Source of the DNA: Chloropicon primus
Lineage: Eukaryota; Chlorophyta; Chloropicophyceae; Chloropicales; Chloropicaceae
Direction: 5' to 3'
NCBI GenBank assembly: GCA_023205875.1
Contig: CP060758.1
Span: 930,001-994,000, forward strand
Length of the DNA: 64,000 bases
A program made the position numbers and the translations under genes. Positions 1 to 43,299 of the stretch are shown here, piece by piece (the first letter of the stretch is position 1; every line of letters begins with the position of its first letter). The notes beneath the pieces are model-generated. The model searched no databases, was not told where the DNA came from, and saw only the letters and a list, made by a program, of their open reading frames with translations.

Positions 1-3000
1 GATTGGCCTGGGGAGCCCAGAGCTGCTGCGACAGACGAAAACATGATAGAGGAGTCCAACCTGATGTTGGACGTGAATCTGCTGAGAATATCGAGTGCAC
101 GTTGCTTTGGAGCAAAGACACTTCTGCACTTCTGGATAGACTGCTTCAGCAGTGTTGCATCTGCTAGCACACCTCCTGCGTGAATCATCACATCAATTTG
201 GTGTTGCATCACTTGAACCACTCCTTCGACATCACTTGTCAAGGAAGCATCACACTTCATTAAGGATTGCACCATCAAGATCTGTGACGATCTGGAGCAG
301 ATCTTCTCAGCGTAAGTTGCACTCGCATGACCTGATCTGCCCAGAGCAACAGTGTGGTGGATGGGCAAGCCCGTGTTCCATGCACAAAGCGCAGAACCCA
401 ATGAGCCTGCACCTCCTGTGATCACAGCTGTCTCCTGCATTCCAAAGGAAACATCTCTTCCTGGGCATACAACAACTTTACCTACATGCTTGGCTTGGGA
501 CATTTGACGCAAGGCAGCATGTACGGAACCAAGACTGTGGATCACCTGAGGCAAAGGTCCAATGCTGCCAGAAGCGAGGAAGCGAGCCGTTTGCAACATC
601 ATCTGCTGCATTCTGTGTGGCGGCAAGAAATCCACAGCAAGCAGCTCGTATGTCACATCCTGACGCTCCATCCTCACAGACTGGCGTGACCAAATGTCAC
701 GCTTTCCAATCTCAACCATCCTACCTCCACTGCCCAAAGTGGACAAGGTTGCTCCTACCATACCTGACGACGTCAAGGAGTTCAAAGCAATATCCACACC
801 ACCAGTGTAGGACACCAACTCTGGATACCGGGTATCTCTCGAGTTCACCACATGCTGAAGCCCCAACGACCTCAGCAAAGAGCGCTTGCGGCTACTTCCA
901 GCCGTGGCCAAGGCGTTGGAACCACTGGCTTGGACAACCTGGAGAGCGGCAAGACCGACTCCTCCTGCTGCGGCGTGAATGAGGACATTGTCATTGCGCT
1001 GCATGCAAGACGCGTGGGAGAAGGCAATCTGCACTGTCACAAACACGGTGGGCACTGTGGCTGCGGCACTGAATCCAACATTACTGGGCAAGGGAACGAA
1101 CAAATCAGAAAGTGCATTCACTTCCGTACCAAGACAACCCTCTGCGAGGCCAAACACTGACTGACCAACACAGAAGCCGTCTGAACCCTTGGTCTCCACA
1201 ACCACACCAGAGCAATCGCCTCCTGGCAAACCTGGGTCCCCGGGATACATGTCCAAAATATTGAGAACATCACGGAAATTCAGTCCAATGGCGTGTACCT
1301 GAAGGATCATATCCATGGTGGTTTTGGAGAGGGGCTCTAAGGCTTGCAGGGCCAAGCTACTGAAAGAACCTCGTGGACTTGGAACAAGCTGCATGTGAGC
1401 TTGCTTCAAGTGAGCTCTGCTGGCGATGAGAGTAGGCACCAAGACCATTCCCCCACGGAGAGCTTCTCCTTGAACATCTGATTCTGCACTTCTCATCAGC
1501 AGAGAGTCGACAATCAACGCGTTCGCATTGGAACCAACGTTGATTGTGTCCTCGATAGATACGTCAACACCACCGCAGGTCAAATTCTGGCATTCCTGTG
1601 CTACAGTGCGCATCAGACCCCACAGGTGTCCCTGAGACGTGTTGACGTCGTTGATGGGGCAATCAAGAGCTCCATAAGCACCGAAGGTTTGAAGGTTCAT
1701 AGGCATATGACCCTTGTTGATCAAATCACGCACAACGCTGAGGGCCAACCCCATCGAGCTGATTTGAGAATCAGGTTCTAAAATAAGCATTGAATCGGTA
1801 GCAGAACCCAAAGGACTCGATGACTGAGCAAGACAAGCATTCCACTGCACAAAGTAGGTCGTGGATCTCTTTTCTTCAATGGATGCCTTGGAGACCGAGG
1901 TCCCTGAAGACATGCTCTTGGTCAACAAGTTGTACACAGTGCTTGAAGACAGGCCGTTTGGATCTTGAAGGCTATGCTGGCTCATGCTCTTCTGAGCCGA
2001 ACTAAACACAGTCTTTGCGACAGCATGCAAAACATTGGATTTGGTTCGCTGGTGCACAACAAAAGCGTCAATTCCAGCAGGAACTTGTGTTTGTTGATCC
2101 TCCCCTGATCCGTTATCGACCAAACTTGTAGCTCCAAGCTGGAGGCAACCATCCAGAGCGCTAGGGTGTGTATACATGCCATTCAAAGCACCACTCTCCT
2201 GGCCACCAATGTGAGCATACGCCTCACCCGACAGGTGTCCGTTGTGTCTTATGGCCTTCAGTACTTGGAACTTGGTCATGTAGTTCAAACCAACTTGATG
2301 CATCGCATCGTAAAGAACGACCGATGGAATGGGTACAGCAGATTTTACCCTCAAGTTTTCTTTGCTAAGAGACAATGAAGTCGATGCAATTTCTTCTGAA
2401 GGCTCGTCCACCGATTTGATCCAGCCCAAAGATGCCCTGAAATGAGCAGTACCAAAGCCCGTGCTGTTCCTCTTGGAAAGCGAGGAGATGTCGAACTTTG
2501 CATCGCCGAGCGTATGCACACTAATCTGAACCACAACATCATCCGCCTTGCCCATGGATTGAGGCAGTACAAGAGGGGCAGGAATGGCAGCCTGTTCCAC
2601 AACAATAGATTCAATCGCACCATCTGTCATGAGATGTCCAAGTGCCGAACCCATCTCCAGGTATCCCGCACCAGGGTACAAGGGTTTGTTTTGAATCTGG
2701 TGATCCCACAAGTAAGAATGCAAGGCCCTTGTCAACGTCGTCTCAAGCTTGACAACTCCATCGACATCCACGCGAGCACACTTCGACAACAAGGGGTGCA
2801 CAGGAGGCAAAACCCAGCACCTCTGTGGTCGCCAGCTCAGTACTGCATTCTCCTTGCTGAACACTGAAAACGGGGTACAACCCAAAATGGCATGACTGTT
2901 CGTTCCTTGGAACGCAAACGAGCTTACACCGCCCACAAGGTCGGCATCTGCGACATTTTGAGAGATACCAAAGGACAACTTTGGCAAGTTGTACTTCGAG

Positions 3001-4125
3001 TTCTCGTTTGATCCAATGATTTGGTGCAAGTGAGGGTTCACGCTACTCAAGTGAATTATGGGCGTGCTCGCTGCGTTCATCAAAGCGTCCATGGTGTGGA
3101 TGAGGCCGGCCGCACCTGCGCCTGGTTCAGTGTGACCAATGCTTGATTTACCTGCAGCCAAGTTCAGAGGGTGGTCTGCTACACGATTTCCCATCAACAC
3201 GGCATTCAAAGCACCGACTTCAATAGGATCGCCAAGTGGCGTTCCAGTACCGTGCATTTGCAGCAGACTTACGTCTGCACCGTCTAAAGACTTGTGTTGC
3301 AATGCTGCTCTTACGACCATTTGCTGTGCAGGACCATTAGGAGCAGTCAACGCACTGGATCTTCCGTCTTGATTTACAGCTGTTCCTAGCACGGCAACGG
3401 GCAGGCTGTCGCTGGAATCTGCTGCTCCACTGCTGTCATCAGCACTTTCCAAGCAAAGGGCACCGCAGAATTCTCCCCTCACATAGCCATCTGCTGAAGC
3501 ATCAAGGGTCTTGCACCTTCCGTCTGCACTGAGCATACCTGCCTTATGGAACATCATTGTTGTATCTGGTGTTGACAAGATGTTTACACCTGCAACAATG
3601 CTTGTCGTCTTCGAGAAGTTTCTCTGTGTGTTTGCAATGTGTGTTGTCACAAGGGACGAGGAACAAGCAGTGTCGATGCTCATGGCTGGTCCTCGGAAGT
3701 CAAACATGAAAGATATCCTTCCTGAAGCAACACTCAAAGCTCCTCCTGTTGCACTGTAAGTAGTCACTCCAGATTGATATTTACTGCACAGTCGGCCGTA
3801 ATCAGTGTTTGAGATTCCAACAAACACGCCGACGGGGCAGGTGTTATCAAGCGCCTTGCAACCAAACTTCAACTCAAGAATTATCTGAATCAATGCTCGT
3901 TGTTGCACGTCCATCAGCATGGACTCCCCTAGGCCAAGGCCTGTGCAGGAAATGTCAAAACCAGCGACGTTTTCCATGAAGGACCCATAAGTTGGAGGTC
4001 TCACATTACTGTATTCTTTCGATACTGAATCCAAATCCCACCGAGTAAACGGAACTCTTGAGATAGTATCAGTCCTAAGCCTTGAGGATGTTGTAATACC
4101 AGAGGGCCCCTTTAGCGCAATAGAG
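1..4125 (-). other. PKS module 8: KS-DH-ER-KR, truncated by window edge
   Basis: Near-identical to module 7. KS 4125-2900 (Cys codon 3663-3665), DH 2870-1920 (catalytic His codon 2700-2702), ER 1390-590 and KR from about 460 to the edge (TGGAGSLG; the active Tyr is among the last residues that the neighbouring copies show just beyond base 1). Its ACP lies outside. Because the repeat is still running at the edge, further copies downstream are likely. Confidence 0.9.
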
Positions 4126-7100
4126 GTACATAACGTGTTCTGGACATCACCGAAAGTTTGTGAATCACAGCCCAAAGTCGTATCTGTGACTGTCACCTTC
4201 ACTCCTGACAAGGATCGCATACTGTCACATATGAACGTTTGCATTGAATCCAGCGTAGGATAGTCAAATACCACCGTCCCTGGAAGTTCAATCGCAAAAA
4301 CGCGTTCCAAATCTGTCCGCAACTCTGTGGCACCCAATGAATCCAAGCCAGCAGCCATGAGGGGCTCGTCCGGCTGGACATCATGACCAATAACGCCGCA
4401 GACGACTGACTTAAGATGACTTCGAATCTGGTCTTCATCCATGACAGGTGCTGCTCCTTGTCCAGTCACAAAACTGATATCTGGCACCTGTTGAGCAGCA
4501 CTAACAGCAAATTCAACTGAAGCATGCTCACTCAAGTAATGCGTCTTCTTTGGGATATGGCTCATGAACACAGGCCAATTAAATGGATTGACGACATCTA
4601 TCGGCGTGGGCGTCATGCTTTGCATGCTCTGCATGACACAAGCCAATGCAGACATACCCTCCTCGGCTGTCAAGGAGGACATTCCCGTCCTTTGCAAACG
4701 CAGAGCTGTCTGCTCGTTCTGCGAAGCCATTCCGCCTCCAGACCAGGCACCCCAGCAAATACTAGAAGCAGTAGATCCCATGCTCATTTGACGCACGGCG
4801 AAAACATCTAGGTACGCGTTGGCTGCACCATAGTTGGATTGGCCTGGGGAGCCCAGAGCTGCTGCGACAGACGAAAACATGATAGAGGAGTCCAACCTGA
4901 TGTTGGACGTGAATCTGCTGAGAATATCGAGTGCACGTTGCTTTGGAGCAAAGACACTTCTGCACTTCTGGATAGACTGCTTCAGCAGTGTTGCATCTGC
5001 TAGCACACCTCCTGCGTGAATCATCACATCAATTTGGTGTTGCATCACTTGAACCACTCCTTCGACATCACTTGTCAAGGAAGCATCACACTTCATTAAG
5101 GATTGCACCATCAAGATCTGTGACGATCTGGAGCAGATCTTCTCAGCGTAAGTTGCACTCGCATGACCTGATCTGCCCAGAGCAACAGTGTGGTGGATGG
5201 GCAAGCCCGTGTTCCATGCACAAAGCGCAGAACCCAATGAGCCTGCACCTCCTGTGATCACAGCTGTCTCCTGCATTCCAAAGGAAACATCTCTTCCTGG
5301 GCATACAACAACTTTACCTACATGCTTGGCTTGGGACATTTGACGCAAGGCAGCATGTACGGAACCAAGACTGTGGATCACCTGAGGCAAAGGTCCAATG
5401 CTGCCAGAAGCGAGGAAGCGAGCCGTTTGCAACATCATCTGCTGCATTCTGTGTGGCGGCAAGAAATCCACAGCAAGCAGCTCGTATGTCACATCCTGAC
5501 GCTCCATCCTCACAGACTGGCGTGACCAAATGTCACGCTTTCCAATCTCAACCATCCTACCTCCACTGCCCAAAGTGGACAAGGTTGCTCCTACCATACC
5601 TGACGACGTCAAGGAGTTCAAAGCAATATCCACACCACCAGTGTAGGACACCAACTCTGGATACCGGGTATCTCTCGAGTTCACCACATGCTGAAGCCCC
5701 AACGACCTCAGCAAAGAGCGCTTGCGGCTACTTCCAGCCGTGGCCAAGGCGTTGGAACCACTGGCTTGGACAACCTGGAGAGCGGCAAGACCGACTCCTC
5801 CTGCTGCGGCGTGAATGAGGACATTGTCATTGCGCTGCATGCAAGACGCGTGGGAGAAGGCAATCTGCACTGTCACAAACACGGTGGGCACTGTGGCTGC
5901 GGCACTGAATCCAACATTACTGGGCAAGGAAACGAACAAATCAGAAAGTGCATTCACTTCCGTACCAAGACAACCCTCTGCGAGGCCAAACACTGACTGA
6001 CCAACACAGAAGCCGTCTGAACCCTTGGTCTCCACAACCACACCAGAGCAATCGCCTCCTGGCAAACCTGGGTCCCCGGGATACATGTCCAAAATATTGA
6101 GAACATCACGGAAATTCAGTCCAATGGCGTGTACCTGAAGGATCATATCCATGGTGGTTTTGGAGAGGGGCTCTAAGGCTTGCAGGGCCAAGCTACTGAA
6201 AGAACCTCGTGGACTTGGAACAAGCTGCATGTGAGCTTGCTTCAAGTGAGCTCTGCTGGCGATGAGAGTAGGCACCAAGACCATTCCCCCACGGAGAGCT
6301 TCTCCTTGAACATCTGATTCTGCACTTCTCATCAGCAGAGAGTCGACAATCAACGCGTTCGCATTGGAACCAACGTTGATTGTGTCCTCGATAGATACGT
6401 CAACACCACCGCAGGTCAAATTCTGGCATTCCTGTGCTACAGTGCGCATCAGACCCCACAGGTGTCCCTGAGACGTGTTGACGTCGTTGGTGGGGCAATC
6501 AAGAGCTCCATAAGCACCGAAGGTTTGAAGGTTCATAGGCATATGACCCTTGTTGATCAAATCACGCACAACGCTGAGGGCCAACCCCATCGAGCTGATT
6601 TGAGAATCAGGTTCTAAAATAAGCATTGAATCGGTAGCAGAACCCAAAGGACTCGATGACTGAGCAAGACAAGCATTCCACTGCACAAAGTAGGTCGTGG
6701 ATCTCTTTTCTTCAATGGATGCCTTGGAGACCGAGGTCCCTGAAGACATGCTCTTGGTCAACAAGTTGTACACAGTGCTTGAAGACAGGCCGTTTGGATC
6801 TTGAAGGCTATGCTGGCTCATGCTCTTCTGAGCCGAACTAAACACAGTCTTTGCGACAGCATGCAAAACATTGGATTTGGTTCGCTGGTGCACAACAAAA
6901 GCGTCAATTCCAGCAGGAACTTGTGTTTGTTGATCCTCCCCTGATCCGTTATCGACCAAACTTGTAGCTCCAAGCTGGAGGCAACCATCCAGAGCGCTAG
7001 GGTGTGTATACATGCCATTCAAAGCACCACTCTCCTGGCCACCAATGTGAGCATACGCCTCACCCGACAGGTGTCCGTTGTGTCTTATGGCCTTCAGTAC

Positions 7101-10100
7101 TTGGAACTTGGTCATGTAGTTCAAACCAACTTGATGCATCGCATCGTAAAGAACGACCGATGGAATGGGTACAGCAGATTTTACCCTCAAGTTTTCTTTG
7201 CTAAGAGACAATGAAGTCGATGCAATTTCTTCTGAAGGCTCGTCCACCGATTTGATCCAGCCCAAAGATGCCCTGAAATGAGCAGTACCAAAGCCCGTGC
7301 TGTTCCTCTTGGAAAGCGAGGAGATGTCGAACTTTGCATCGCCGAGCGTATGCACACTAATCTGAACCACAACATCATCCGCCTTGCCCATGGATTGAGG
7401 CAGTACAAGAGGGGCAGGAATGGCAGCCTGTTCCACAACAATAGATTCAATCGCACCATCTGTCATGAGATGTCCAAGTGCCGAACCCATCTCCAGGTAT
7501 CCCGCACCAGGGTACAAGGGTTTGTTTTGAATCTGGTGATCCCACAAGTAAGAATGCAAGGCCCTTGTCAACGTCGTCTCAAGCTTGACAACTCCATCGA
7601 CATCCACGCGAGCACACTTCGACAACAAGGGGTGCACAGGAGGCAAAACCCAGCACCTCTGTGGTCGCCAGCTCAGTACTGCATTCTCCTTGCTGAACAC
7701 TGAAAACGGGGTACAACCCAAAATGGCATGACTGTTCGTTCCTTGGAACGCAAACGAGCTTACACCGCCCACAAGGTCGGCATCTGCGACATTTTGAGAG
7801 ATACCAAAGGACAACTTTGGCAAGTTGTACTTCGAGTTCTCGTTTGATCCAATGATTTGGTGCAAGTGAGGGTTCACGCTACTCAAGTGAATTATGGGCG
7901 TGCTCGCTGCGTTCATCAAAGCGTCCATGGTGTGGATGAGGCCGGCCGCACCTGCGCCTGGTTCAGTGTGACCAATGCTTGATTTACCTGCAGCCAAGTT
8001 CAGAGGGTGGTCTGCTACACGATTTCCCATCAACACGGCATTCAAAGCACCGACTTCAATAGGATCGCCAAGTGGCGTTCCAGTACCGTGCATTTGCAGC
8101 AGACTTACGTCTGCACCGTCTAAAGACTTGTGTTGCAATGCTGCTCTTACGACCATTTGCTGTGCAGGACCATTAGGAGCAGTCAACGCACTGGATCTTC
8201 CGTCTTGATTTACAGCTGTTCCTAGCACGGCAACGGGCAGGCTGTCGCTGGAATCTGCTGCTCCACTGCTGTCATCAGCACTTTCCAAGCAAAGGGCACC
8301 GCAGAATTCTCCCCTCACATAGCCATCTGCTGAAGCATCAAGGGTCTTGCACCTTCCGTCTGCACTGAGCATACCTGCCTTATGGAACATCATTGTTGTA
8401 TCTGGTGTTGACAAGATGTTTACACCTGCAACAATGCTTGTCGTCTTCGAGAAGTTTCTCTGTGTGTTTGCAATGTGTGTTGTCACAAGGGACGAGGAAC
8501 AAGCAGTGTCGATGCTCATGGCTGGTCCTCGGAAGTCAAACATGAAAGATATCCTTCCTGAAGCAACACTCAAAGCTCCTCCTGTTGCACTGTAAGTAGT
8601 CACTCCAGATTGATATTTACTGCACAGTCGGCCGTAATCAGTGTTTGAGATTCCAACAAACACGCCGACGGGGCAGGTGTTATCAAGCGCCTTGCAACCA
8701 AACTTCAACTCAAGAATTATCTGAATCAATGCTCGTTGTTGCACGTCCATCAGCATGGACTCCCCTAGGCCAAGGCCTGTGCAGGAAATGTCAAAACCAG
8801 CGACGTTTTCCATGAAGGACCCATAAGTTGGAGGTCTCACATTACTGTATTCTTTCGATACTGAATCCAAATCCCACCGAGTAAACGGAACTCTTGAGAT
8901 AGTATCAGTCCTAAGCCTTGAGGATGTTGTAATACCAGAGGGCCCCTTTAGCGCAATAGAGGTACATAACGTGTTCTGGACATCACCGAAAGTTTGTGAA
9001 TCACAGCCCAAAGTCGTATCTGTGACTGTCACCTTCACTCCTGACAAGGATCGCATACTGTCACATATGAACGTTTGCATTGAATCCAGCGTAGGATAGT
9101 CAAATACCACCGTCCCTGGAAGTTCAATCGCAAAAACGCGTTCCAAATCTGTCCGCAACTCTGTGGCACCCAATGAATCCAAGCCAGCAGCCATGAGGGG
9201 CTCGTCCGGCTGGACATCATGACCAATAACGCCGCAGACGACTGACTTAAGATGACTTCGAATCTGGTCTTCATCCATGACAGGTGCTGCTCCTTGTCCA
9301 GTCACAAAACTGATATCTGGCACCTGTTGAGCAGCACTAACAGCAAATTCAACTGAAGCATGCTCACTCAAGTAATGCGTCTTCTTTGGGATATGGCTCA
9401 TGAACACAGGCCAATTAAATGGATTGACGACATCTATCGGCGTGGGCGTCATGCTTTGCATGCTCTGCATGACACAAGCCAATGCAGACATACCCTCCTC
9501 GGCTGTCAAGGAGGACATTCCCGTCCTTTGCAAACGCAGAGCTGTCTGCTCGTTCTGCGAAGCCATTCCGCCTCCAGACCAGGCACCCCAGCAAATACTA
9601 GAAGCAGTAGATCCCATGCTCATTTGACGCACGGCGAAAACATCTAGGTACGCGTTGGCTGCACCATAGTTGGATTGGCCTGGGGAGCCCAGAGCTGCTG
9701 CGACAGACGAAAACATGATAGAGGAGTCCAACCTGATGTTGGACGTGAATCTGCTGAGAATATCGAGTGCACGTTGCTTTGGAGCAAAGACACTTCTGCA
9801 CTTCTGGATAGACTGCTTCAGCAGTGTTGCATCTGCTAGCACACCTCCTGCGTGAATCATCACATCAATTTGGTGTTGCATCACTTGAACCACTCCTTCG
9901 ACATCACTTGTCAAGGAAGCATCACACTTCATTAAGGATTGCACCATCAAGATCTGTGACGATCTGGAGCAGATCTTCTCAGCGTAAGTTGCACTCGCAT
10001 GACCTGATCTGCCCAGAGCAACAGTGTGGTGGATGGGCAAGCCCGTGTTCCATGCACAAAGCGCAGAACCCAATGAGCCTGCACCTCCTGTGATCACAGC

Positions 10101-13100
10101 TGTCTCCTGCATTCCAAAGGAAACATCTCTTCCTGGGCATACAACAACTTTACCTACATGCTTGGCTTGGGACATTTGACGCAAGGCAGCATGTACGGAA
10201 CCAAGACTGTGGATCACCTGAGGCAAAGGTCCAATGCTGCCAGAAGCGAGGAAGCGAGCCGTTTGCAACATCATCTGCTGCATTCTGTGTGGCGGCAAGA
10301 AATCCACAGCAAGCAGCTCGTATGTCACATCCTGACGCTCCATCCTCACAGACTGGCGTGACCAAATGTCACGCTTTCCAATCTCAACCATCCTACCTCC
10401 ACTGCCCAAAGTGGACAAGGTTGCTCCTACCATACCTGACGACGTCAAGGAGTTCAAAGCAATATCCACACCACCAGTGTAGGACACCAACTCTGGATAC
10501 CGGGTATCTCTCGAGTTCACCACATGCTGAAGCCCCAACGACCTCAGCAAAGAGCGCTTGCGGCTACTTCCAGCCGTGGCCAAGGCGTTGGAACCACTGG
10601 CTTGGACAACCTGAAGAGCGGCAAGACCGACTCCTCCTGCTGCGGCGTGAATGAGGACATTGTCATTGCGCTGCATGCAAGACGCGTGGGAGAAGGCAAT
10701 CTGCACTGTCACAAACACGGTGGGCACTGTGGCTGCGGCACTGAATCCAACATTACTGGGCAAGGAAACGAACAAATCAGAAAGTGCATTCACTTCCGTA
10801 CCAAGACAACCCTCTGCGAGGCCAAACACTGACTGACCAACACAGAAGCCGTCTGAACCCTTGGTCTCCACAACCACACCAGAGCAATCGCCTCCTGGCA
10901 AACCTGGGTCCCCGGGATACATGTCCAAAATATTGAGAACATCACGGAAATTCAGTCCAATGGCGTGTACCTGAAGGATCATATCCATGGTGGTTTTGGA
11001 GAGGGGCTCTAAGGCTTGCAGGGCCAAGCTACTGAAAGAACCTCGTGGACTTGGAACAAGCTGCATGTGAGCTTGCTTCAAGTGAGCTCTGCTGGCGATG
11101 AGAGTAGGCACCAAGACCATTCCCCCACGGAGAGCTTCTCCTTGAACATCTGATTCTGCACTTCTCATCAGCAGAGAGTCGACAATCAACGCGTTCGCAT
11201 TGGAACCAACGTTGATTGTGTCCTCGATAGATACGTCAACACCACCGCAGGTCAAATTCTGGCATTCCTGTGCTACAGTGCGCATCAGACCCCACAGGTG
11301 TCCCTGAGACGTGTTGACGTCGTTGGTGGGGCAATCAAGAGCTCCATAAGCACCGAAGGTTTGAAGGTTCATAGGCATATGACCCTTGTTGATCAAATCA
11401 CGCACAACGCTGAGGGCCAACCCCATCGAGCTGATTTGAGAATCAGGTTCTAAAATAAGCATTGAATCGGTAGCAGAACCCAAAGGACTCGATGACTGAG
11501 CAAGACAAGCATTCCACTGCACAAAGTAGGTCGTGGATCTCTTTTCTTCAATGGATGCCTTGGAGACCGAGGTCCCTGAAGACATGCTCTTGGTCAACAA
11601 GTTGTACACAGTGCTTGAAGACAGGCCGTTTGGATCTTGAAGGCTATGCTGGCTCATGCTCTTCTGAGCCGAACTAAACACAGTCTTTGCGACAGCATGC
11701 AAAACATTGGATTTGGTTCGCTGGTGCACAACAAAAGCGTCAATTCCAGCAGGAACTTGTGTTTGTTGATCCTCCCCTGATCCGTTATCGACCAAACTTG
11801 TAGCTCCAAGCTGGAGGCAACCATCCAGAGCGCTAGGGTGTGTATACATGCCATTCAAAGCACCACTCTCCTGGCCACCAATGTGAGCATACGCCTCACC
11901 CGACAGGTGTCCGTTGTGTCTTATGGCCTTCAGTACTTGGAACTTGGTCATGTAGTTCAAACCAACTTGATGCATCGCATCGTAAAGAACGACCGATGGA
12001 ATGGGTACAGCAGATTTTACCCTCAAGTTTTCTTTGCTAAGAGACAATGAAGTCGATGCAATTTCTTCTGAAGGCTCGTCCACCGATTTGATCCAGCCCA
12101 AAGATGCCCTGAAATGAGCAGTACCAAAGCCCGTGCTGTTCCTCTTGGAAAGCGAGGAGATGTCGAACTTTGCATCGCCGAGCGTATGCACACTAATCTG
12201 AACCACAACATCATCCGCCTTGCCCATGGATTGAGGCAGTACAAGAGGGGCAGGAATGGCAGCCTGTTCCACAACAATAGATTCAATCGCACCATCTGTC
12301 ATGAGATGTCCAAGTGCCGAACCCATCTCCAGGTATCCCGCACCAGGGTACAAGGGTTTGTTTTGAATCTGGTGATCCCACAAGTAAGAATGCAAGGCCC
12401 TTGTCAACGTCGTCTCAAGCTTGACAACTCCATCGACATCCACGCGAGCACACTTCGACAACAAGGGGTGCACAGGAGGCAAAACCCAGCACCTCTGTGG
12501 TCGCCAGCTCAGTACTGCATTCTCCTTGCTGAACACTGAAAACGGGGTACAACCCAAAATGGCATGACTGTTCGTTCCTTGGAACGCAAACGAGCTTACA
12601 CCGCCCACAAGGTCGGCATCTGCGACATTTTGAGAGATACCAAAGGACAACTTTGGCAAGTTGTACTTCGAGTTCTCGTTTGATCCAATGATTTGGTGCA
12701 AGTGAGGGTTCACGCTACTCAAGTGAATTATGGGCGTGCTCGCTGCGTTCATCAAAGCGTCCATGGTGTGGATGAGGCCGGCCGCACCTGCGCCTGGTTC
12801 AGTGTGACCAATGCTTGATTTACCTGCAGCCAAGTTCAGAGGGTGGTCTGCTACACGATTTCCCATCAACACGGCATTCAAAGCACCGACTTCAATAGGA
12901 TCGCCAAGTGGCGTTCCAGTACCGTGCATTTGCAGCAGACTTACGTCTGCACCGTCTAAAGACTTGTGTTGCAATGCTGCTCTTACGACCATTTGCTGTG
13001 CAGGACCATTAGGAGCAGTCAACGCACTGGATCTTCCGTCTTGATTTACAGCTGTTCCTAGCACGGCAACGGGCAGGCTGTCTCTGGAATCTGCTGCTCC

Positions 13101-16100
13101 ACTGCTGTCATCAGCACTTTCCAAGCAAAGGGCACCGCAGAATTCTCCCCTCACATAGCCATCTGCTGAAGCATCAAGGGTCTTGCACCTTCCGTCTGCA
13201 CTGAGCATACCTGCCTTATGGAACATTTGGGACAGATTTGGAAGCAGTATGGTCTTCACACCAGCTGATATCGATGTCGTTGATGATCGCTCTGTTTCCC
13301 TCAATGCCAAATGTATGGATACCAAAGAAGATGAGCAAGCGGTATCAATAGCTACCGATGGTCCCTTAAGATTGAAGAGGTAAGATACACGTCCACAAGC
13401 AACGCTTGTGGCACTCCCTGATGCTGTGTAAGCGGAAATTGCGCTATATTGTTGCACCATATCGGAATAGTCAACTGTTGAAATACCCAAGAAAAAGGCA
13501 ACGTAATTGGATTCGGACTTCCATGCTTTCTGCCAGGACAAAGCACTAATATCCTGCAGCATATGACGTTGCTCTGGGGACATGGTGACTGCTTCATTGT
13601 TTGATATTTGGAAAACACTGATGTCGAAAGAGTCCAAAATCTCAATGAAAGAACCAAAAGGACAAAGTGAACTTGATCCACTCAATAAAGTAGCATCCCA
13701 TCGACTGTAAGGAACCCTTGATAACGCATCCCCACAACATTGCAAATCTCCTTTTGTCGCAACGTAATCAGATATAGACACAAGAGCAGCACTTGCGTCA
13801 GTAGCCTTCACATCCATGTCTACATCGACGGCTGAAGCGCAACAATCATCCCCCATAGAAACACTCAAATATTCTGACAAAGAATGTACCGTTGGATAAT
13901 CAAATATCAATGTGCCTGGTAGTTGCAGACCCAGCACACCCTCAAGGGTGTTCCTGAATTCGACCGCACCAAGAGAATCCAAACCTGCATCCATCAATGG
14001 CTCGTGCAGACCAACATTCTTTCCAAGGACACTCTGTGTCACATCGAAAACGCTTTTCTCGACATCTTCTGGTCTCAAAGTTTTCATGTTGTTCCTAGAC
14101 AAGTCACTTGTGTTGTGAACGCTTGAAGATGTCTGCACTTGGACTGACACCTCAGATTCGAATTCCGCAAAGAATGGTGAACGCACAGAAGGATTGGCAA
14201 GGAACTTGGACCAATCAAATGGGTTCACACACTGGATAGGAGAAAGCGATTCCATGCTCTGAGTGCATGTCGCAAACGTACTTGCAAGTGTCGACAAGGC
14301 TTGCAAGCCTATCGCAGGACTCACGGCATTCATTCCAGTACGCTCAAGCTTCTGAAGCACCTTTGCTGATGCCATTCCACCACCAGACCACGCACCCCAT
14401 TGAATGCTCGATGCTCCAACACCGGTATGTTGAAGACTCACAGATAAGCTGTCAAGGTATGCATTTGCTGCACTGTATCCGCCTTGGCCAGGTGAGCCCA
14501 AGAGAGATGCAACAGAAGAAAAGTAAAATATCTGCTGTAAAGGATATTCACCCATGCCTTCATGAAGACGATGAGCTGCATCTACCTTTGATCCGTACAC
14601 CAACCTCTGAGAACGGACGGTTTGGTTGGACAAAGAGGCATCAGACAAAACACCACCAGAGTGAATCAAGCCTGTGAAGTCTTCTCCGACCCTCTTGAGA
14701 CCTGAAAGATCTTCCAAGCTCGATGCATCACACTTCAGCATGGTGACAAGACCTCTGATTCCAAGACCAAACGCAGACCTGTCGTGTAGTTGTGCGTTTC
14801 TACCTGAACGGCCCAACAGTGTGGCACTTGCACATCCAGATTTGCACAACCAACTTCCAACAAGTCTCCCTAAGGAGCCCATACCTCCTGTAATCATCAC
14901 CTTCGCATCACTAACGCTGTTCTCAAAAGTCAAGCTGTTGGTAAGCACAACTTTACCTACATGCTTGGCTTGGGACATTTGACGCAAGGCAGCATGTACG
15001 GAACCAAGACTGTGGATCACCTGAGGCAAAGGTCCAATGCTGCCAGAAGCGAGGAAGCGAGCCGTTTGCAACATCATCTGCTGCATTCTGTGTGGCGGCA
15101 AGAAATCCACAGCAAGCAGCTCGTATGTCACATCCTGACGCTCCATCCTCACAGACTGGCGTGACCAAATGTCACGCTTTCCAATCTCAACCATCCTACC
15201 TCCACTGCCCAAAGTGGACAAGGTTGCTCCTACCATACCTGACGACGTCAAGGAGTTCAAAGCAATATCCACACCACCAGTGTAGGACACCAACTCTGGA
15301 TACCGGGTATCTCTCGAGTTCACCACATGCTGAAGCCCCAACGACCTCAGCAAAGAGCGCTTGCGGCTACTTCCAGCCGTGGCCAAGGCGTTGGAACCAC
15401 TGGCTTGGACAACCTGAAGAGCGGCAAGACCGACTCCTCCTGCTGCGGCGTGAATGAGGACATTGTCATTGCGCTGCATGCAAGACGCGTGGGAGAAGGC
15501 AATCTGCACTGTCACAAACACGGTGGGCACTGTGGCTGCGGCACTGAATCCAACATTACTGGGCAAGGGAACGAACAAATCAGAAAGTGCATTCACTTCC
15601 GTACCAAGACAACCCTCTGCGAGGCCAAACACTGACTGACCAACACAGAAGCCGTCTGAACCCTTGGTCTCCACAACCACACCAGAGCAATCGCCTCCTG
15701 GCAAACCTGGGTCCCCGGGATACATGTCCAAAATATTGAGAACATCACGGAAATTCAGTCCAATGGCGTGTACCTGAAGGATCATATCCATGGTGGTTTT
15801 GGAGAGGGGCTCTAAGGCTTGCAGGGCCAAGCTACTGAAAGAACCTCGTGGACTTGGAACAAGCTGCATGTGAGCTTGCTTCAAGTGAGCTCTGCTAGCG
15901 ATGAGAGTAGGCACCAAGACCATTCCCCCACGGAGAGCTTCTCCTTGAACATCTGATTCTGCACTTCTCATCAGCAGAGAGTCGACAATCAACGCGTTCG
16001 CATTGGAACCAACGTTGATTGTGTCCTCGATAGATACGTCAACACCACCGCAGGTCAAATTCTGGCATTCCTGTGCTACAGTGCGCATCAGACCCCACAG

Positions 16101-31100: not shown

Positions 31101-34100
31101 TCCATAACTCGAGAGAGCCATACACGATTCTGCGGCATGCATTGTCACAAGAGATGAAGAGCAAGCTGTATCGATTGACACTGAAGGCCCCGAGCACCCA
31201 AACAGATATGATAACCTTCCAGCAGCTGCGCTGTGTGCATTACCTGTGCCCATGTAGGCATCCACTCTTTGCAGCAACACCTTTGTCATTGCAAAATGAT
31301 CCATTTGCGATATTCCTACATAGCAACTACACTGTGACAGCATGTCGTCGCTCAAACCATTGAGTACATTCGTGGCGTGCTGAACAAGAATTCTGTGCTG
31401 GGGGTCCATCATACTCGCTTCTGTGGCGGACATGTTGTAGAGAAGCCTGTCGAAGTTGTACACATCTTTCATGAAGTTTCCAAACCTTGGGATGCTTCCG
31501 TATCTTTCCATCAATACCTCAGAATCCCATACGGCATATGGCACAGCAAAGATGGCATCGGAGGGTTCTACGAGAGCATCTATGTTGTCCACCATATTCT
31601 TATTTGCAGTTGCATATGAGTATGCAAGAGGAAGAGTAACGAAGTTGCCCCCATCTACAACTTGAAGATGCGCTAAACTGGTCACTTCAGCATCAACTGG
31701 CGCTGTCTCCGGAGAAGTTGCTAGAAGATGGTCTGAAAGTGATGAAATCGTGGGATGATCAAATGCAATGGTGGCAGATACATCAATGTCAAGAGAGTCC
31801 TGTAAACTTGTGGCAAGCGCAACAGCAGTTGAAGAGGTCAAGCCGAAATCCCACAGAGAGTCATCACTTGAAATGTTTGAAATGCCTAGACAATCCTCTA
31901 CAGTCTTGGATAGCACCTCCATCAAGCCCTTTCTCGCCGTTGAAGCAGCTAGTTGAGAGGTATGACCAGTCGTCTCCACAGGAGTCATTGCATTGCCAGA
32001 CGCTTCCTCTTTCTCAGTAGACTTTTCGCTAACAAAATTATAGATTTCGTCAACGGAGCTGTAGTCAAAAAGAAGAGTGGCAGGAACCTCAAACGACAAA
32101 GCACTCTCAAGATCAGTACTAACTTTCACTGCAAGCATGGAGGTCATACCAGCATCCCATACAGATTGCGAGGTGTCTTCAATGTTGACCGACTGAGAAA
32201 TGCAGTCAAGAAGAATGGTCTTCAAGATATCAGGACTTGCATGAGACTGCGAAACTGCAGGCATCTCAAGCTTCACGCTCAAGTCAGGCATTGACGCGAT
32301 CGACTCTAAAACAAACAAGCTCGACATGCCGAAATCATTCTCTGCTGAGTTGCCCACGACACAGCACACAAAAATGCCGTCGACATCATACTCTGCAAGA
32401 AGGTTGAGCGCCACGGCGAGATCCCCCTCGCTCTCGCATTCCACGAGAATGACGGCCTCCCCCTCCTCTGCTTCGACGCCACCATGCGAGACAACTTCCC
32501 ACAGGTCCTTGCAGTCCTTCAAGGAGAAAGTTGTGGCACTGCCTTCGCCCTTGGACGCAAGGTAATTCTTGCGCAACTCCGTCTTCAGGATCTTTCCTGA
32601 CCCCGTGGTGGGCATCTCGGACACGATCAAGATGCGGGAGGGAACCTTGTACGAGGACAAAGCTTTCTGGCAGTGCCTCACCAAGTCTCTCTCGCTTGCG
32701 GAGCTACCTGGCTGAATTCTCACCGCCGCGGTCACCATTTCGCCCATAACGCTGTTTGGCACGCCAAAGACTGCTGCTTGCATGACAGAGGGGTGCTCCA
32801 TCAAAGCAGCCTCGACTTCGACACAGTACACGTTCTCTCCCCCGCACAGAATCATGTCCTTGCACCTGTCGATCACAGTGATGTATCCAGAGCCATTCAC
32901 CGTGGCCAGGTCTCCCGTGCGGAACCATCCGTCACGGAAAGCCTCCTTGTTGGCCTCTGGGTTGTTGGCGTACCCATCAAACACGGTGGGTCCCCTGCAC
33001 AGCACCTCTCCAACTTCGCCACTGTCCGGCTTGGCCTCGGTGCCAGCGTCCGTGACCACCTTCACATCCATAAGAGAAAACGGCCTTCCCGAGGTGCAGA
33101 TGAGGTCCAACAGGCTCTGCACGTCGAGGCTGCGCAGCTCCTCCTCGGACAGGATCGACATGGAGATCTTCCCGCAGCATTCGGTCATTCCGTAGGACAG
33201 GAAGAACTCGCACCCAAACGTCCCAATCGCCTTCTTCACGGTCGCCGGAACGAGCGGGGACCCTCCGCAGGAGAGAATTCTCAGCGTGGTGAAGTCCAGC
33301 GCCTGGCACCAAGGGCTGCTCACCATCAGGGTGACCATGGTGGAAGCAACGTTGCTTATGGTCACGCCCTCCCTCTCCATCGTCTGCATCGTCCTCACCG
33401 AGTCAAAGCTTTCCAGCATCACGTGGGTGCCCTGCACGTGCGTCACCGAGTATATTGCGAAGGCGTCCACCAGGTGGAACATGGGCGCGAAGTGCCCCCA
33501 CACGTCACTCTTGTTGATCCTCATGGCATCGATCGCCCCGCCAGAGTGCTTGCAGACTATGCCCATGCTCAGAATGACGCGCTTCGGCTTCCCCGTCGTT
33601 CCGCTCGTGTAGTACACCTGGTACGGACTGGCCAGACCAAGATCAACCTTGTTTCCGAAGAAGATTCCCCTGAGATCTCCACCGCCAAAGGCGTCCTCGT
33701 ACTTTCTGCACGACACCTCGTCGTCGAGCAAGGCGCGAGGAACGCCCCCGGGGCCCGACCTCACGACAAGAAGCAGCTTCACACTGGACTCCTGGCCGGC
33801 CTCCCTCATGGCGTCCACCGCACGGTCAAGAAGATCTTGATGCACAATCACCGTCGACGGCAAGGAGTCTCCAAGGATGTACGCCAGCTCGTGAGCGACG
33901 AGGCGGGTGTTCAGATTCACGACGCTCGCCCCCAACCACGCCGCCGCAAAGTGAACCTCAATGGTTTCGTGGATGTTGGGGAGCAGCACGCCAACGCTCG
34001 ACCCTTGACCCACTCCGTGGCCCTGGAGGAAGGAACCTAGCTCGCTGCACCTGCCGTGGAGCTCCTGGTAGGTGAACTTGGAGCTGCCGTCGACCACCGC

Positions 34101-37100
34101 CACCTTGTCCGGCACCTCCAGCGCCGCCGAGACCAAGGAATTCCATGGATGGTCCACTTGTGTGGCTTGGGGCATGATGTGTATTTTGCTTGGCCTGTGA
34201 CTTTCTTTCCGGGACGCAAGTTTCAAGTCCAAGACAGTGTCCTCCCAGGGCATGTAAGCCAAGGTCTCCAGCACTCGCACCAGCATAACTTTTGTTTTCT
34301 GTGCCGTCTTTCTCGTGAAAGCGTGCGCGTCATATGTCAGCATTCCAACGAGGGACCCGTTAGACGCTTTTCCAAGTGCAAGCCAATAATCAAATGCAGA
34401 CTCGGGCATCGGAAGGGAAAAGTTGTCGTAGTTCTGAGACAAGAAACTGAAGCAGGTCGTAAACAAGGGATTGCTTCCCGCAATCGTTCGTTTGGGCTGC
34501 AACCTCTTCAGCAAGCTCAGCCACGGAACATCGGGATGGTCAAAGGAGTCCAACGTCCTCGTCATCAGAAGTCTCAAGAATTCCACAATGGATTGACTGT
34601 TCGTAATTTGGGCTCTGACAGGGAGGATGCTGGAAAAGCACCCGATGGACGAGCCTATTTGTGACAACTGGGTGCTCTTGGATCTCAAGTCGAAGGGTGT
34701 ACCAAGCGTGATGTCATCAACATCGTTCGCCATCATATGCAACGTGAGAAACCACGCTCCGAAGACTGCATTGAACAATGTCAGATTCTGACGGGAAGCC
34801 TGTTTGAGAAGCCTCTGCGTGAGGTCTACAGAAACACCAATTTGAATGCTTCCAGCCGCCGTGTGCAGGGAGAGCTGCCTCTTGAAATCACACTCCAGGT
34901 TCAAGATCTCGAATTTTCCTCTTCGATCTTCTGTGAGGTAATTGTACCAGTGATCAAGGTTCTGTTTGGCATCATCCGGATCCACCTCGTTCCTACGTAA
35001 TGTTGACTCTATGAACAAGAGATCGCTTTCGCCTCCACCTCCTGACGTTGGAGGATCAGGCCGCTTCTGCAATCTCTCCAGGTACTCGGTTTTGACATCT
35101 TCCGCAATGATCCCCATGGATCTCCAATCTGCAACAATGTGGTGCGTTATGAACAGAACATTGTTTCCGTGAACGTGAATCCTCGTGATCGGACCTCGCA
35201 CGAGGTCGAAGGGGTGACTCATGGCCTCACTGAATCCCTTCTCCTCCTCGTACACGACGAGGTCAACCAATTCGCTGCTCGGCTTCACTCGGAAGTGCGA
35301 ACCGTCTGAAGAAAACACCACTCTGAGGATAGGGTGCTTTCTAAGGACGGACATGTATGCAGAGCGCAGAATGTCCACGTCGATGGAAGTATCCAGGCTG
35401 ATTACGCAATTCATGTTGTAGCAACTTGAGTGCGGTTTGAGCGTGAAGTGTGTCCAAAACACGAGCTGCTCCTCCGTAAGAGGCCATTCAGTGTGCACGA
35501 GAATACTTTGCAGCACCTTCTGTGCCTGCGCGTCCTCTTCCTTTGGCTTCCTTGGGGCAGCTGTCTCAGCCGTCAGAGCAATTCCTGGCTGGACATCGTG
35601 TGATTGGACACTCTTGACTCCTCCACCAATGAACTTGCTTATGTCGTCAATGGAGGGGTAATCAAAGATCAGGGTATTCGGAATCTGCAAACCAAAGTCA
35701 GAAGTCAGCCTGTTCTGCAATTCCATACCGCCCAAGGAATCTATGCCCATTTCGATCAAGGACTTGTCCTCTTCAACGTCGTCGTCCAGAATCTGAGCGA
35801 CAATTTTCGATACTCGCTTCTTAATGCTTTCGAGCAGAGTCGCGGACTCCGCGATGGCGTGGGCAGGTGTTGATGCCGCTGCATTGTCATCGTTGACCCG
35901 GAGGACTTCCCTCTGAAACATAGCACCGACTTTGCTGACCTCCAATGGCGACGCAAGGATCTGGCTCTTCCCCGACAGCCACAACTTCTGCCTCACGAAG
36001 ACCTCGTTCAGAACTCGGAGTCCCTCTTGAGTTGGAAGAGTCCCCAAACCCTGGCGGTGCAACCGCTGCAAGACTTGCTTGTCCCTTGCCGCCATCCCCA
36101 AGTCTCTCCAGCCTCCCCACTGGATGCTCGTGGAAGGGACTCCGGACATCCTCAAGCTGTCGCACAGGAGATCCATGAAAGAATTCGCTGCAGAGTAATT
36201 GGCTTGGCCAGCTGTTGGAACCACTGACGCAATCGATGAGAAGCACACCAGCGACGTAATGGGCTGCAATGGAAGTGATACCAACCTCTGCAACCCTTCC
36301 ACCTTTGGTTGGAAGCAGCTTCGACTGCTTGACACAGTCTGCGACCTGAGCAGACCGTCAAAGAGACCCCCGGCAGCATGGACCACGCTCCTGATATCCG
36401 AGAAGGCGAACGGATGTGCAACATCTTCGGAGAAGGACACGTCGCAGAGCGAAGCCGTGTACGAGCACAAATCAGGCAACCTCCGAGAAGGCAACGTTCT
36501 GCCGACAAGGACCACGGACTTCCCTTGCCTGGATTGGTACCACCTGGCAGAGCAAAGACCAATATCCCCCATCCCGCCCGTAAACAGGCAGCTACCTCTG
36601 ACTTCGTGATCTGCACCAAGGGTGTTGGTTGCTAGGCGGTCGGACAGGATAGAAGAGTAGAGCACGTTCGATCTGCACGAGGATCCCAGCACACTGGTTC
36701 CCCCGAATTTTGCGGTGGAGGTTGAGTACACGTCCTGGTCCAAGGCCTCCAAAGTCGTTTGGGGATACTCCTTGAACATTGTTCGGAGCATGGACCAGTG
36801 GAAGACGCCATCACCTCCCCATCCCTTCTTCGCGTTTGTGACGCCACCCTTCGAAGATGGCAGCACGCTGAAGGTCTCAAGGCGCAGGCTCGTGCTCAGA
36901 TTCGTGCTCGCGATTCGAGTCGCGATGCTCAGAACGGCGAGATAAGTCCACAAAGGGGCGGCGCCCGCCTTGCTGTGGAACGTGTGCGCACTCCCAACGG
37001 TGAGATTGGCACTTCTGGAATCAAATGGAACAGAAGGCTCACTCGCACTAGGACCGAAGGCAAGATGACGGATTGTGTACATCATCTTGCTTTTCCTGGA

Positions 37101-40100
37101 CTTGCTCCTCAGTGCATCTCTGGAGCCAATTTCTTTCAGCAGCAGTCCAGTAGCCAGCAAGACCTGTGCGCCACCTCTTCTGATGTTGTGATCATGGCAC
37201 TCGTTGTCGCCAGTCGAATAAACCCTGTTGTGGCCCGAATAATAAACCCCAGCTTTCTTGCTCCCGAAACTCAAATAATCTGTGGCCACAGGGACCTTCA
37301 CACCCCACTTGCCTTTGCTGGTCATCTTGCAGGCCGCGTTGAAATGGATCGCGGCATCAGATATCGCGGGATGCATGTTGAAATAGTCCTCCGGCTCGCC
37401 CTCGTAGCTGATGGAACACAGTGGACTGCAGCTTGGGTCGGGAGATATCCTGGCCGAGCATGTTTGAGCATTCTCTGGTCGGTCGGTGACCTGCAACTCT
37501 TTCCTCGCGTACGCAGTACAGTGGACGTTGTTGTGGCTCGAGATGGTGACGTAGCCATTTCCGTCCACGCGAGTGGAGAGCAGTGTCTCAAATTCAAAAC
37601 CGGTGTGCTGAGGAAGGAGGCAGGGCAGCATAATTGACAAATCTTGCACTCCCATAGGACTCTTCGTGCCTTGCCTCGTGTTCTGAGACGTGAGCAGAGA
37701 CGAGAACGCCATCTCAAAGAACCCAGAGCCTGGAAACAGGCACCTGTTGAAAACCTTGTGGTCCCACAGAAAGGGCTGCCTCTCCACGGAGAAGCACACT
37801 TCGATCTGGTGTCCAGGCTCACCAGAGCTGGCCCCAAAGGACAGGAAAGGATGAGCGATCGGCAGGCTCCACAAATACGTGCTTTCCAGCAAGTGGAATC
37901 TCGCCTTGCTGCTTTTCCACACCACGCCATCGCTGACGGCGTCAGAAGTGAACGAAGCGTGGGCATTCGTTCCCTGGAAAGCGAACGAACTGACGTGGTG
38001 AGTCTTCCCGTGCCCCTGATAGACGTTGCACGCCTCCCTCGAGGACAGAACCGAATTCTTGTGCTGCTTCAATGTAGCGACCACATGAGCATTCATCTCC
38101 CTCAGGTGACACATTCCTCTAAAGTTGTTCAAGTCTTGACAGAGGGCCAGGACGCCCACGGCCCCGGCCGCGGGCTCGGCGTGCCCAACATTCGATTTCA
38201 CAGAGGACAAGGAGATGCAGGCATCTCCTGCACTCGAGCTGAACGCCGAAAGAGCTGCTCCAACCTCTATTGGATCGCCGAGAGCGGTTCCCGTTCCGTG
38301 CATTTGAAGGACAGCGGCGTCCTCGGGCAAGCTGCCTCCCCTGGCCATCACCTGCCTGATAATGTCCTGCTGAGAGGGGCCGTTCGGGGCCGTGAGGGAG
38401 CTCGATCTCCCGTCCTGATTCACCGACGAAGCCTTCGCAACTATGGTGTGCCCCCCGGACTCGTCGCTGTGCAGGGCAAAGGCGAGAGCGGCTTCGGCTC
38501 TGACGTAGCCATCCGCGGAAGCATCCAGAGTTTTGCACCGCCCTTCCGAGGACAGCATTCCAGCAAGTGAGCATGACTCCGTCCACTCCCTGGCGAGCGT
38601 GAGGTTCGCACCGCAGAAGAGGGAGCTCTCAGAACTCCCTGGTGACATCGCGATGTGCTCCCTGGCCACGTGCATACCCACGAGAGATGAGGAGCACGCC
38701 GTGTCTATTGTGAGCGAGGGCCCCGTCATGCCAAATGTGTAAGAGAGTCGCCCGGAAGTCACACTGAGGTGCCCACTCGTCGCGGAGAACGTGCCCAAAC
38801 CGTTGTGGGCCACGTTCATGCGAGAGTATTCCAGCATTGATATTCCCACGAACACTCCCGAATTCGTCGACAACGGTGCTGGAGACTCGGTCATGACCAC
38901 GGCCGTGGTCTCCAGCAGCATCCTCTGCTGGGGATCCATGAACCTGGCCTCGTTCGATGCAATTCTGAAAGCTTGGCAATCGAAATCTTCGATGGAGCTC
39001 AGGAAGGACCCGAAGTTTGCGCCGACCTTCTTGCTGAGCTGGTCCCTCCAATCCCACCTCGACAGAGGCACGGTGCTGATCGAGTCGAAGTTGCCTTCCG
39101 TGTTGCTGCAGGGCATCTTGCTGTCACAGCACGTGACGAAAACCGTTGTGGTCGCATCACCTTGGATTCCAGAGGCTGGAAGGGCGTCCAACTCGCCCCC
39201 CGCGAGAGGACCCACCTGATCCGCTGCGTCGCATTCGGAGATGTAGCCCAGCAACAGGTTCAACGTGGGGTAATCAAACGTCGCTGTCGCGGACAGCTCG
39301 ACGTCCACCTCCTCCTTGATCTCTTCCATCAGTTGGACGGCAGTAGAAGAATTCAACCCTGCATCCGTGAAGGGCTGATCCGGCTCCAAGGCAAAATCGA
39401 AAAAGGACTGAATAATGTGCTTCACGGAATCCAACTTTGCGTCCGTGCCCTCCGAGTGGTGTCCTGGCGCTTGCTGTGTGCCGCACAGCGCGACCAAGTT
39501 CTCAGAGATGCTGGAAATGTTGCCGTAGTCAAACACCAGGGTGGAAGGCAAGGACACGCTCAGCTTCTCGCCGAGCCTGTTCGACAGCTCAATCGCGGTG
39601 GCCGAGGTCATCCCGTTCTCCATCAGAGGATCCCCCTCCCCCACGGAGGCTCCTGTCAACTCTGCGACAATATCTGAGACCAGCGTCTTCCAGGACTCTG
39701 GCTCTGACTTCGGCTCGACCTCTCCCGCAGGTGCACAGCCCGCAATCACGAGCGACAGCAAGAACCAGTCGCTGAATTCCACGCTGGACACATGGACAAT
39801 CACAACCTGGCCCAACAAGGCGTCCAGCAGTCTCATCGTCTCCGCCTGGACTGCGTCCCCCTTGTACACAATGACTGTGCTTCGGTCTTCCTCGTGCTCT
39901 GCAAGGAGGTTGAGCGCCACGGCGAGATCCCCCTCGCTCTCGCATTCCACGAGAATGACGGCCTCCCCCTCCTCTGCTTCGACGCCACCATGCGAGACAA
40001 CTTCCCACAGGTCCTTGCAGTCCTTCAAGGAGAAAGTTGTGGCACTGCCTTCGCCCTTGGACGCAAGGTAATTCTTGCGCAACTCCGTCTTCAGGATCTT

Positions 40101-43222: not shown

Positions 43223-43299
<77 letters not shown>

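What the first reader, a model, noticed from the sequence alone, without database searches (positions are those of the whole stretch)
1..41663. Intronless giant synthase frame of at least 13,887 codons
A single frame stays open over 41.7 kb on the minus strand and has not ended at the window edge. The domains read in order without a break. If no introns intervene further on, this is among the larger single polypeptides predicted, in the class of the algal multimodular type I synthases.
Basis: seen in the sequence. Interest (0 to 1): 0.88.

Follow-up and report, generated by a model that had tools for sequence, protein, structure and literature searches.

The report
Giant unbroken polyketide synthase gene, Chloropicon
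A tiny marine green alga carries a 47,000-base gene, with no visible introns, for one 15,730-residue assembly-line enzyme that should build a long fatty chain; it belongs to a known class of algal giant enzymes, but the public gene model cuts it short, and the same genome may hold one almost three times longer.

Summary
The minus-strand frame from ATG 41663 runs off the window without a stop and ends in the flanking DNA at C5:924471-924473: 15,730 codons (1.69 MDa) with no internal stop. It ends with carrier and thioesterase domains, 87 bases from the stop codon of a convergent frame.

It is a multimodular type I polyketide synthase of the known green-algal trans-AT class: ligase, carriers, nine ketosynthases, one condensation domain, a second ligase, reducing modules, thioesterase; no acyltransferase matched inside. 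Catalytic residues of all KS, KR and DH domains are kept; the second thioesterase-like domain lacks its serine.

The genome is Chloropicon primus, probably strain RCC138 (inferred). The public model found for this gene (P0214) stops at 3,314 residues by splicing out carriers and a ketosynthase active site, so 'intronless' rests on sequence, not RNA.

Notable: both ligase stretches are identical over 1,756 bases; modules 6-8 repeat with 4 mismatches in 8,904 bases. A C8 locus (132 kb, 27 ketosynthases, about 44,070 codons) is broken by seven one-base indels.

New member of a known kind.

The parts
1..41663 (-). Part of the giant PKS reading frame that lies in the window (codons 1 to about 13,888 of 15,730); continues to a stop at C5:924471-924473 outside the window
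40098..41630 (-). Loading acyl-CoA-ligase-type domain 1 (AMP-binding plus C-terminal domain), aa 12-522
   Evidence: PF00501 1.9e-66, PF13193 1.7e-19; best-scoring solved structures are fatty-acyl/feruloyl-CoA synthetases
39219..39680 (-). Two tandem carrier (ACP) domains, aa 662-721 and about 755-815
   Evidence: PF00550; profile of own ACPs; the limits of the second are approximate
35628..39086 (-). Module 1: KS1 (860-1179), DH (1271-), KR (1690-1854), ACP (1950-2012)
34203..35492 (-). NRPS-type condensation (C) domain, aa 2058-2487, motif HHIVAD; the only C-domain match in the genome search
   Evidence: PF00668 7.5e-38
32592..34124 (-). Second acyl-CoA-ligase-type domain, aa 2514-3024, inside a 1,756-base stretch identical to the loading ligase stretch
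31725..32174 (-). Two tandem carriers after ligase 2, aa 3164-3211 and 3254-3313
   Evidence: PF00550
26919..31595 (-). Module 2: KS2-DH-ER-KR-ACP (aa 3357-4915)
22104..26786 (-). Module 3: KS3-DH-ER-KR-ACP (aa 4960-6520)
18459..21992 (-). Module 4: KS4-(DH remnant)-KR-ACP, no DH or ER match in Pfam (aa 6558-7735)
13839..18347 (-). Module 5: KS5-DH (below Pfam cut-off, H and D kept)-ER-KR-ACP (aa 7773-9275)
9039..13730 (-). Module 6: KS6-DH-ER-KR-ACP (aa 9312-10875)
4203..8909 (-). Module 7: KS7-DH-ER-KR-ACP (aa 10919-12487)
1..4073 (-). Module 8: KS8-DH-ER-KR (to aa ~13,888; the end of its KR and its ACP lie outside). Beyond the window: KS9 (14135-14472), ACP (14870-14940), thioesterase with GHSYG (14987-15107), second thioesterase-like domain without its Ser (15382-15479), stop
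1..13226 (-). Tandem repeat of period 4,836 bases over modules 6-8 (aa 9480-12447 against 11092-14059: 8,904 bases, 4 mismatches; the last 0.5 kb lies outside the window)

Best explanation
One nuclear gene of the picoplanktonic green alga Chloropicon primus, read as a single uninterrupted frame, encodes a 15,730-residue, 1.69-MDa non-iterative trans-AT type I polyketide synthase with an embedded condensation/ligase module. Likely working (inferred from domain order): the N-terminal ligase adenylates a carboxylic acid and loads it on the first carriers; KS1-DH-KR adds one malonyl-derived unit and leaves it unsaturated; the C domain joins the chain to a second acid loaded by the internal ligase; modules 2-8 add seven C2 units, six fully reduced and one (module 4) left as a hydroxyl; KS9 adds a last unreduced unit; the thioesterase releases a mostly saturated long-chain product. 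Malonyl units would come from one or both free-standing malonyl transacylases of the genome. SHOWN: frame, domains, active-site residues, no AT match inside, free ATs and phosphopantetheinyl transferases in the genome. INFERRED: single transcript and polypeptide, colinear use of modules, substrates and product.
For: Frame and stop. Domain order. Nine of nine KS have Cys-His-His and eight of eight KR have Lys-Ser-Tyr-Asn in my alignment; seven of seven DH keep His and Asp, and the 12 carriers printed have a Ser at the attachment site. No AT match in the frame; the genome search gave two PF00698 matches, both free-standing with GLSLG, and two PF01648 matches. Downstream, a convergent frame that looks like an aldo/keto reductase (read by eye) stops 87 bases from the giant's stop. 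P0214, from another assembly, starts at the same Met and agrees at 3,178 of the first 3,180 residues. The green-algal proteins named show no PF00698 in their precomputed domains, most bacterial ones do.
Against: No RNA or protein data were available. The public model P0214 has two introns of about 525 and 304 bases and ends at 3,314 aa; its authors had RNAseq (PMC6731263). Third-position GC steps from 0.63-0.78 (codons 1-3000) to 0.40-0.54 (3001-15000), not far from where that model ends, as a fusion of two genes could give. Repeats of 4.8 kb at 99.95% identity mean that the number of modules depends on the assembly. The second thioesterase-like domain has Gly where the nucleophile Ser should be. 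On the 5' side the nearest plus-strand frame with a family match starts at 43090; the 1.4 kb between was not excluded as a place for an upstream exon.
Confidence: 0.82

Rival explanations
1. The frame is transcribed as two or more genes, or is spliced: an N-terminal ligase-PKS-C-ligase protein of about 3,300 aa, as the public model says, followed by a separate module array.
For: Public model P0214, 3,314 aa, three exons, from an annotation that used RNAseq; shift in third-position GC near codon 3000.
Against: The model's first intron (525 bases, GT..AG, in frame, no stop) removes the end of one carrier and the whole next one; the second (about 304 bases) removes the KS2 active-site Cys and leads 16 codons out of frame to a stop. 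The same paper gives a mean intron of 152 bases (PMC6731263). The frame is open throughout and these parts match conserved domains.
Confidence: 0.13
2. The length is partly an assembly product: near-identical modules 6-8 are over- or under-counted, so the true protein has a different number of modules.
For: 8,904 bases of tandem repeat with 4 mismatches; the C8 array of the same assembly holds seven one-base breaks; contig C5 has 1,118,318 bases here, the contig of P0214 1,105,792, a difference of 12.5 kb.
Against: It would change the module count, not the class.
Confidence: 0.25
3. A decayed or unexpressed array kept open by chance or by gene conversion.
For: Second thioesterase-like domain without Ser; module 4 has a truncated DH; no expression data.
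Against: No stop in 15,730 codons against 409-764 in every other frame; catalytic residues kept in nine KS, eight KR and seven DH, including the divergent copies.
Confidence: 0.04

Closest known systems
Multimodular trans-AT type I PKSs of green algae (CrePKS1, CvaPKS1/2, OluPKS3, MicPKS2; Shelest et al. 2015, PMC4661987)
   Same: MDa size, many modules in one protein, no internal AT, N-terminal ligase in some, near-identical duplicated modules, occasional C domain (OluPKS3, MicPKS2)
   Different: Larger than the 1.2 MDa quoted for Chlorella, though with fewer KS (9) than the 14 listed for one O. lucimarinus protein; internal ligase stretch is a base-for-base copy of the loading one; duplicates reach 99.95% DNA identity (the paper quotes 89-98% protein similarity for one case)
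Chlamydomonas PKS1 (Heimerl 2018; seen only as a reference and in one sentence of PMC12633428)
   Same: Giant green-algal type I PKS; implicated in zygote wall formation, a possible kind of use here
   Different: 11 KS by PMC4661987; no functional data for the gene studied here
PKZILLA-1 and -2 of Prymnesium parvum (seen through passages of PMC12194139 and PMC12300183; original not read)
   Same: Giant algal assembly lines; the C8 locus of this genome would match in size (about 44,070 codons)
   Different: PKZILLA-1 is 4.7 MDa with 140 domains; the C5 gene is 1.69 MDa with about 48; different algal phylum
Mycolactone PKS (mlsA/mlsB); search listing and abstracts' first lines only, rest recalled
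   Same: Highly similar modules within one huge PKS
   Different: Bacterial, plasmid-borne, three genes; cis-AT (recalled)

Membership tests
Non-iterative green-algal trans-AT type I PKS | Several KS-containing modules in one polypeptide | tested here: met
   Nine KS in one frame; that the frame is one polypeptide is inferred
Non-iterative green-algal trans-AT type I PKS | No integrated AT domain; free-standing AT in the genome | tested here: met
   No PF00698; two free PF00698 loci in the genome
Non-iterative green-algal trans-AT type I PKS | KS sequences group with algal rather than bacterial PKSs | tested here: inconclusive
   69 KS rows: bacteria form one clade without any C5 KS; KS3/6/7/8 sit with KSs of P0026, another C. 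primus PKS (99/94); KS4/5 pair; KS1, KS2, KS9 are long branches without firm place
Non-iterative green-algal trans-AT type I PKS | Expressed as one chain and used colinearly | not testable with these tools
   No RNA or protein data
NRPS/PKS hybrid | C domain with HHxxxD | tested here: met
   HHIVAD at aa 2174; Pfam and PDB matches
NRPS/PKS hybrid | Amino-acid-type adenylation domain | tested here: not met
   Ligase 2 equals ligase 1. Of the 60 PDB sequences shown of 223, an NRPS protein first appears at row 59; of the 25 NCBIfam families shown of 107 none is an NRPS family. PMFHL at core A4, with Leu where amino-acid A domains have Asp (residue mapping recalled)

The most novel reading that the evidence does not exclude
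Chloropicon primus, with a genome of 17.6 Mb, encodes a set of intronless gigasynthases, of which the C5 gene is one and the C8 locus the largest: one gene of about 44,070 codons (27 KS, 27 KR, 19 DH, 15 ER, 29 carriers counted; a ligase found only at its start and thioesterases only at its end), a protein of PKZILLA-1 size and the largest of the green lineage known to me. As a further, separate guess, the C5 line loads the same acid twice, at its start and inside, and joins it through its C domain.
Probability: 0.4. Interest if true: 0.8.

Novelty: new member of a known kind. Interest (0 to 1): 0.5.

Why it matters
It gives a start-to-release reading of a giant algal assembly line in a compact genome where long-read RNA and peptide tests are practical, and shows that public models cut such genes into pieces. 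The near-perfect identity of ligase and module blocks makes recent, block-wise exchange inside one PKS directly visible. If the C8 locus is one gene, proteins of about 4.7 MDa are not confined to toxin-making haptophytes.

Tried and rejected
Contamination or bacterial origin: rejected; the gene lies inside a 1.1-Mb contig whose two ends carry TTTTAGG-type repeats (L026, L027, printed), near frames with COG6 and ubiquitin/PI-kinase domains, and its first 3,180 residues match a public C. primus protein.

Telomere check: the exact triple CCTAAAAA, named canonical for CCMP1205 in PMC6731263, was found in only two places (C15, C19); C5 carries mostly the 7-base unit. This fits the range given in PMC12301720 and was one reason to think of RCC138.

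Using the protein database to see whether the full 15,730-aa protein is annotated: not informative. None of the proteins listed exceeds 8,000 aa although their length limits allowed 15,750 and 17,500, so the database seems to be capped. One search, with a shorter query, found P0214.

BLASTP of the whole protein against itself gave no off-diagonal matches, probably because contained alignments are dropped; replaced by tiles and shared exact words (direct repeats only).

Tree of KS domains: the bootstrap had not settled and KS1, KS2 and KS9 are long branches, so I draw no origin from it. Of the relatives in hand I put 17 proteins (at most five KS each) into the tree; the rest were left out.

P0026 and P0065 against C8: both start and end inside domains and match several repeats about equally well, so they do not settle the C8 breaks.

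A selection test (dN/dS) was considered and not run. No structure prediction and no fold search was run. Gene families were searched in Pfam and NCBIfam only.

Literature: 'Chloropicon primus' with 'polyketide synthase' is in 3 held papers, 2 listed; 'Chloropicon primus' in 45, 30 listed; the 2025 comparative paper has no 'polyketide' or 'PKS' in its main text.

Full report
WHAT IS THERE. The minus-strand frame is real. From the stop codon before it at window 41733-41735 the frame has no stop down to base 3: 13,910 codons, 13,887 from the first ATG at 41663. The flanking 16 kb show that it goes on for another 1,843 codons to a TAG at C5:924471-924473, so that the full frame is 15,753 codons stop to stop and 15,730 from the ATG, 1.69 MDa. 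In the same 47,193 bases every other frame has 409 to 764 stops and no open run above 479 codons. A public model from another assembly starts at the same Met.

WHERE IT IS FROM. The window is C5:930001-994000 of a 17,584,162-base assembly in 20 contigs. A protein named 'polyketide synthase [Chloropicon primus]' (P0033) lies on a contig of 1,503,776 bases, the length of C3 here. Lemieux et al. 2019 (PMC6731263; passages and part of the methods read) describe strain CCMP1205 with 20 chromosomes and 17.40 Mb, a polyketide synthase family of 12 members, and low-GC PKS regions on chromosomes 3, 5 and 8. Turmel et al. 2025 (PMC12301720; abstract and passages read) add strain RCC138, 20 chromosomes, 17.5 Mb, Nanopore/Canu/Pilon, telomere units from TTTAGG to TTTTTAGG. 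Both ends of C5 carry such repeats. I infer C. primus, most likely RCC138, and take the contigs of P0214, P0026 and P0065 (1,105,792 and 802,619 bases) as CCMP1205.

ANATOMY (residues counted from the ATG). Ligase 1 (12-522), two carriers; module 1 KS-DH-KR-ACP (860-2012); C domain (2058-2487, HHIVAD); ligase 2 (2514-3024), two carriers (3164-3211, 3254-3313); modules 2 and 3 KS-DH-ER-KR-ACP; module 4 KS-KR-ACP with a DH remnant; modules 5 to 8 KS-DH-ER-KR-ACP; KS9, ACP (14870-14940), thioesterase (14987-15107, GHSYG), second thioesterase-like domain (15382-15479) with GFGMG, so without the nucleophile. Own profiles count 9 KS, 8 KR, 6 ER and 13 carriers; the DH profile rings 9 times, whereas I read seven DH domains and take the surplus as remnants or split matches (not examined). 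All nine KS have the Cys and both His (KS9 in a variant form), all eight KR the Lys, Ser, Tyr and Asn, all seven DH the His and Asp.

NO AT INSIDE. No acyltransferase domain matches in the frame. The genome search gave two PF00698 matches, both free-standing with GLSLG, on C9 and C5, and two PF01648 matches. This is the trans-AT layout that Shelest et al. 2015 report for almost all of about 30 non-iterative algal PKSs (PMC4661987; abstract, results parts 1-2 and passages read).

THE PUBLIC MODEL CONTRADICTS THE SINGLE FRAME. P0214, 3,314 aa, contig 1,105,792, named 'polyketide synthase [Chloropicon primus]', matches at 3,178 of the first 3,180 residues, then skips residues 3181-3355 (525 bases, GT..AG), resumes, leaves the frame after about residue 3473 (a gap of about 304 bases) and ends 16 codons into another frame. 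The skipped stretches hold the end of one carrier, the next carrier and the KS2 active-site Cys; they are open in frame and match conserved domains. I therefore read the model as an artefact of gene prediction. Against me: that annotation used RNAseq, and only RNA would decide.

EXCHANGE OF BLOCKS. Codons 1-585 and 2503-3087 are identical over 1,756 bases (1 mismatch in 1,766 by BLASTN). Residue 3042 is Ser here and Gly in P0214, whose first copy has Ser, so the copies differ between assemblies by one residue. Codons 9480-12447 and 11092-14059 share 8,904 bases with 4 mismatches: modules 6-8 are a tandem repeat of period 4,836. Module 3 shares 3,102 bases with modules 7 and 8 with 7 mismatches each. 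KR-ACP blocks of modules 3, 4 and 5 are near-identical to one another but unlike those of 6-8. Edges recur about 30 to 50 residues after the KS cysteine and within about 20 residues of the start of KR, so halves of KS have been exchanged separately. All 19 stretches keep the frame. Module duplication is known in algae (PMC4661987: 89-98% protein similarity for one case); this is closer.

WHAT THE LIGASES DO. Ligase 1 scores best with a fatty-acyl-CoA synthase, a feruloyl-CoA synthetase and FadD13. By recalled residue mapping it has Leu where amino-acid A domains carry Asp. As ligase 2 has the same sequence, the internal module should load the same kind of acid, which must carry a second group (hydroxyl or amine) if the C domain is to join it. 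This is inference.

RELATIVES. Of the first 30 proteins (1960 matches, 120 listed), those with an organism name are green algae, C. primus among them (30-54% over short parts); many rows have no name. For the C domain the only match above 30% identity (93 of 93 listed; 120 of 400 listed) is P0214; the others named are bacterial or fungal. It is the only C-domain match in the genome search. The KS tree does not place KS1, KS2 and KS9.

A LARGER NEIGHBOUR. Of 70 KS matches in the genome, 9 are in this gene, 27 on C8, 13 on C3, 9 on C6, 2 on C2; 2 are single KS frames and 8 short fragments. On C8 eight frames abut on one strand over 132,218 bases. Among the matches found, a ligase lies only at its start and thioesterases only at its end. 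Each of the seven breaks is one base longer or shorter than 2 to 7 near-identical copies. The breaks at 760.7 and 779.8 kb are the same change in two copies, which speaks for a systematic base-calling error or for a real, copied mutation rather than for random errors. The runs at the breaks are short (1-4 bases), so homopolymer error is not the obvious cause. Because of this I have lowered the probability of the bold reading from 0.45 to 0.4 on checking.

VERDICT. Confirmed and complete: a single-frame giant PKS of a known algal class, truncated in the public model. Expression, splicing and product are untested.

Noticed in passing
G000:C8:675026-807243 (L011-L024), minus strand: PKS array of 132,218 bases, about 44,070 codons, 27 KS, ligase found only at the start and thioesterases only at the end, broken by seven one-base indels against near-identical copies; two of the breaks are the same change.
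   Followed up: partly
G000:C3:1342136-1396027 minus and G000:C6:922243-961784 plus: Two more giant PKS loci with 13 and 9 KS; frames up to 10,990 and 11,374 codons; a ligase at the start on C3, a thioesterase at the end on C6.
   Followed up: no
P0214, P0026, P0065 (public C. primus proteins): These three public PKS models begin or end inside domains or splice out catalytic parts, so the published count of 12 PKS genes may count fragments.
   Followed up: partly
window 1-41663: Third-position GC is 0.63-0.78 in codons 1-3000 and 0.67-0.83 after codon 15000, but 0.40-0.54 in between: the module array has a different composition from both ends.
   Followed up: no
window 49970-51985 (+): Frame with ubiquitin-like and PI3/PI4-kinase domains, as in plant type II PI4-kinases (recalled).
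   Followed up: no
window 43090-47727 (+): Two long frames upstream with weak Big_12 and CARDB (Ig-like) matches.
   Followed up: no
G000:C9:170864-171739 and G000:C5:474241-475188, minus: The only two acyltransferase matches of the genome search, both with GLSLGEYTAL; the second match runs over a TAA that is probably its own stop.
   Followed up: partly
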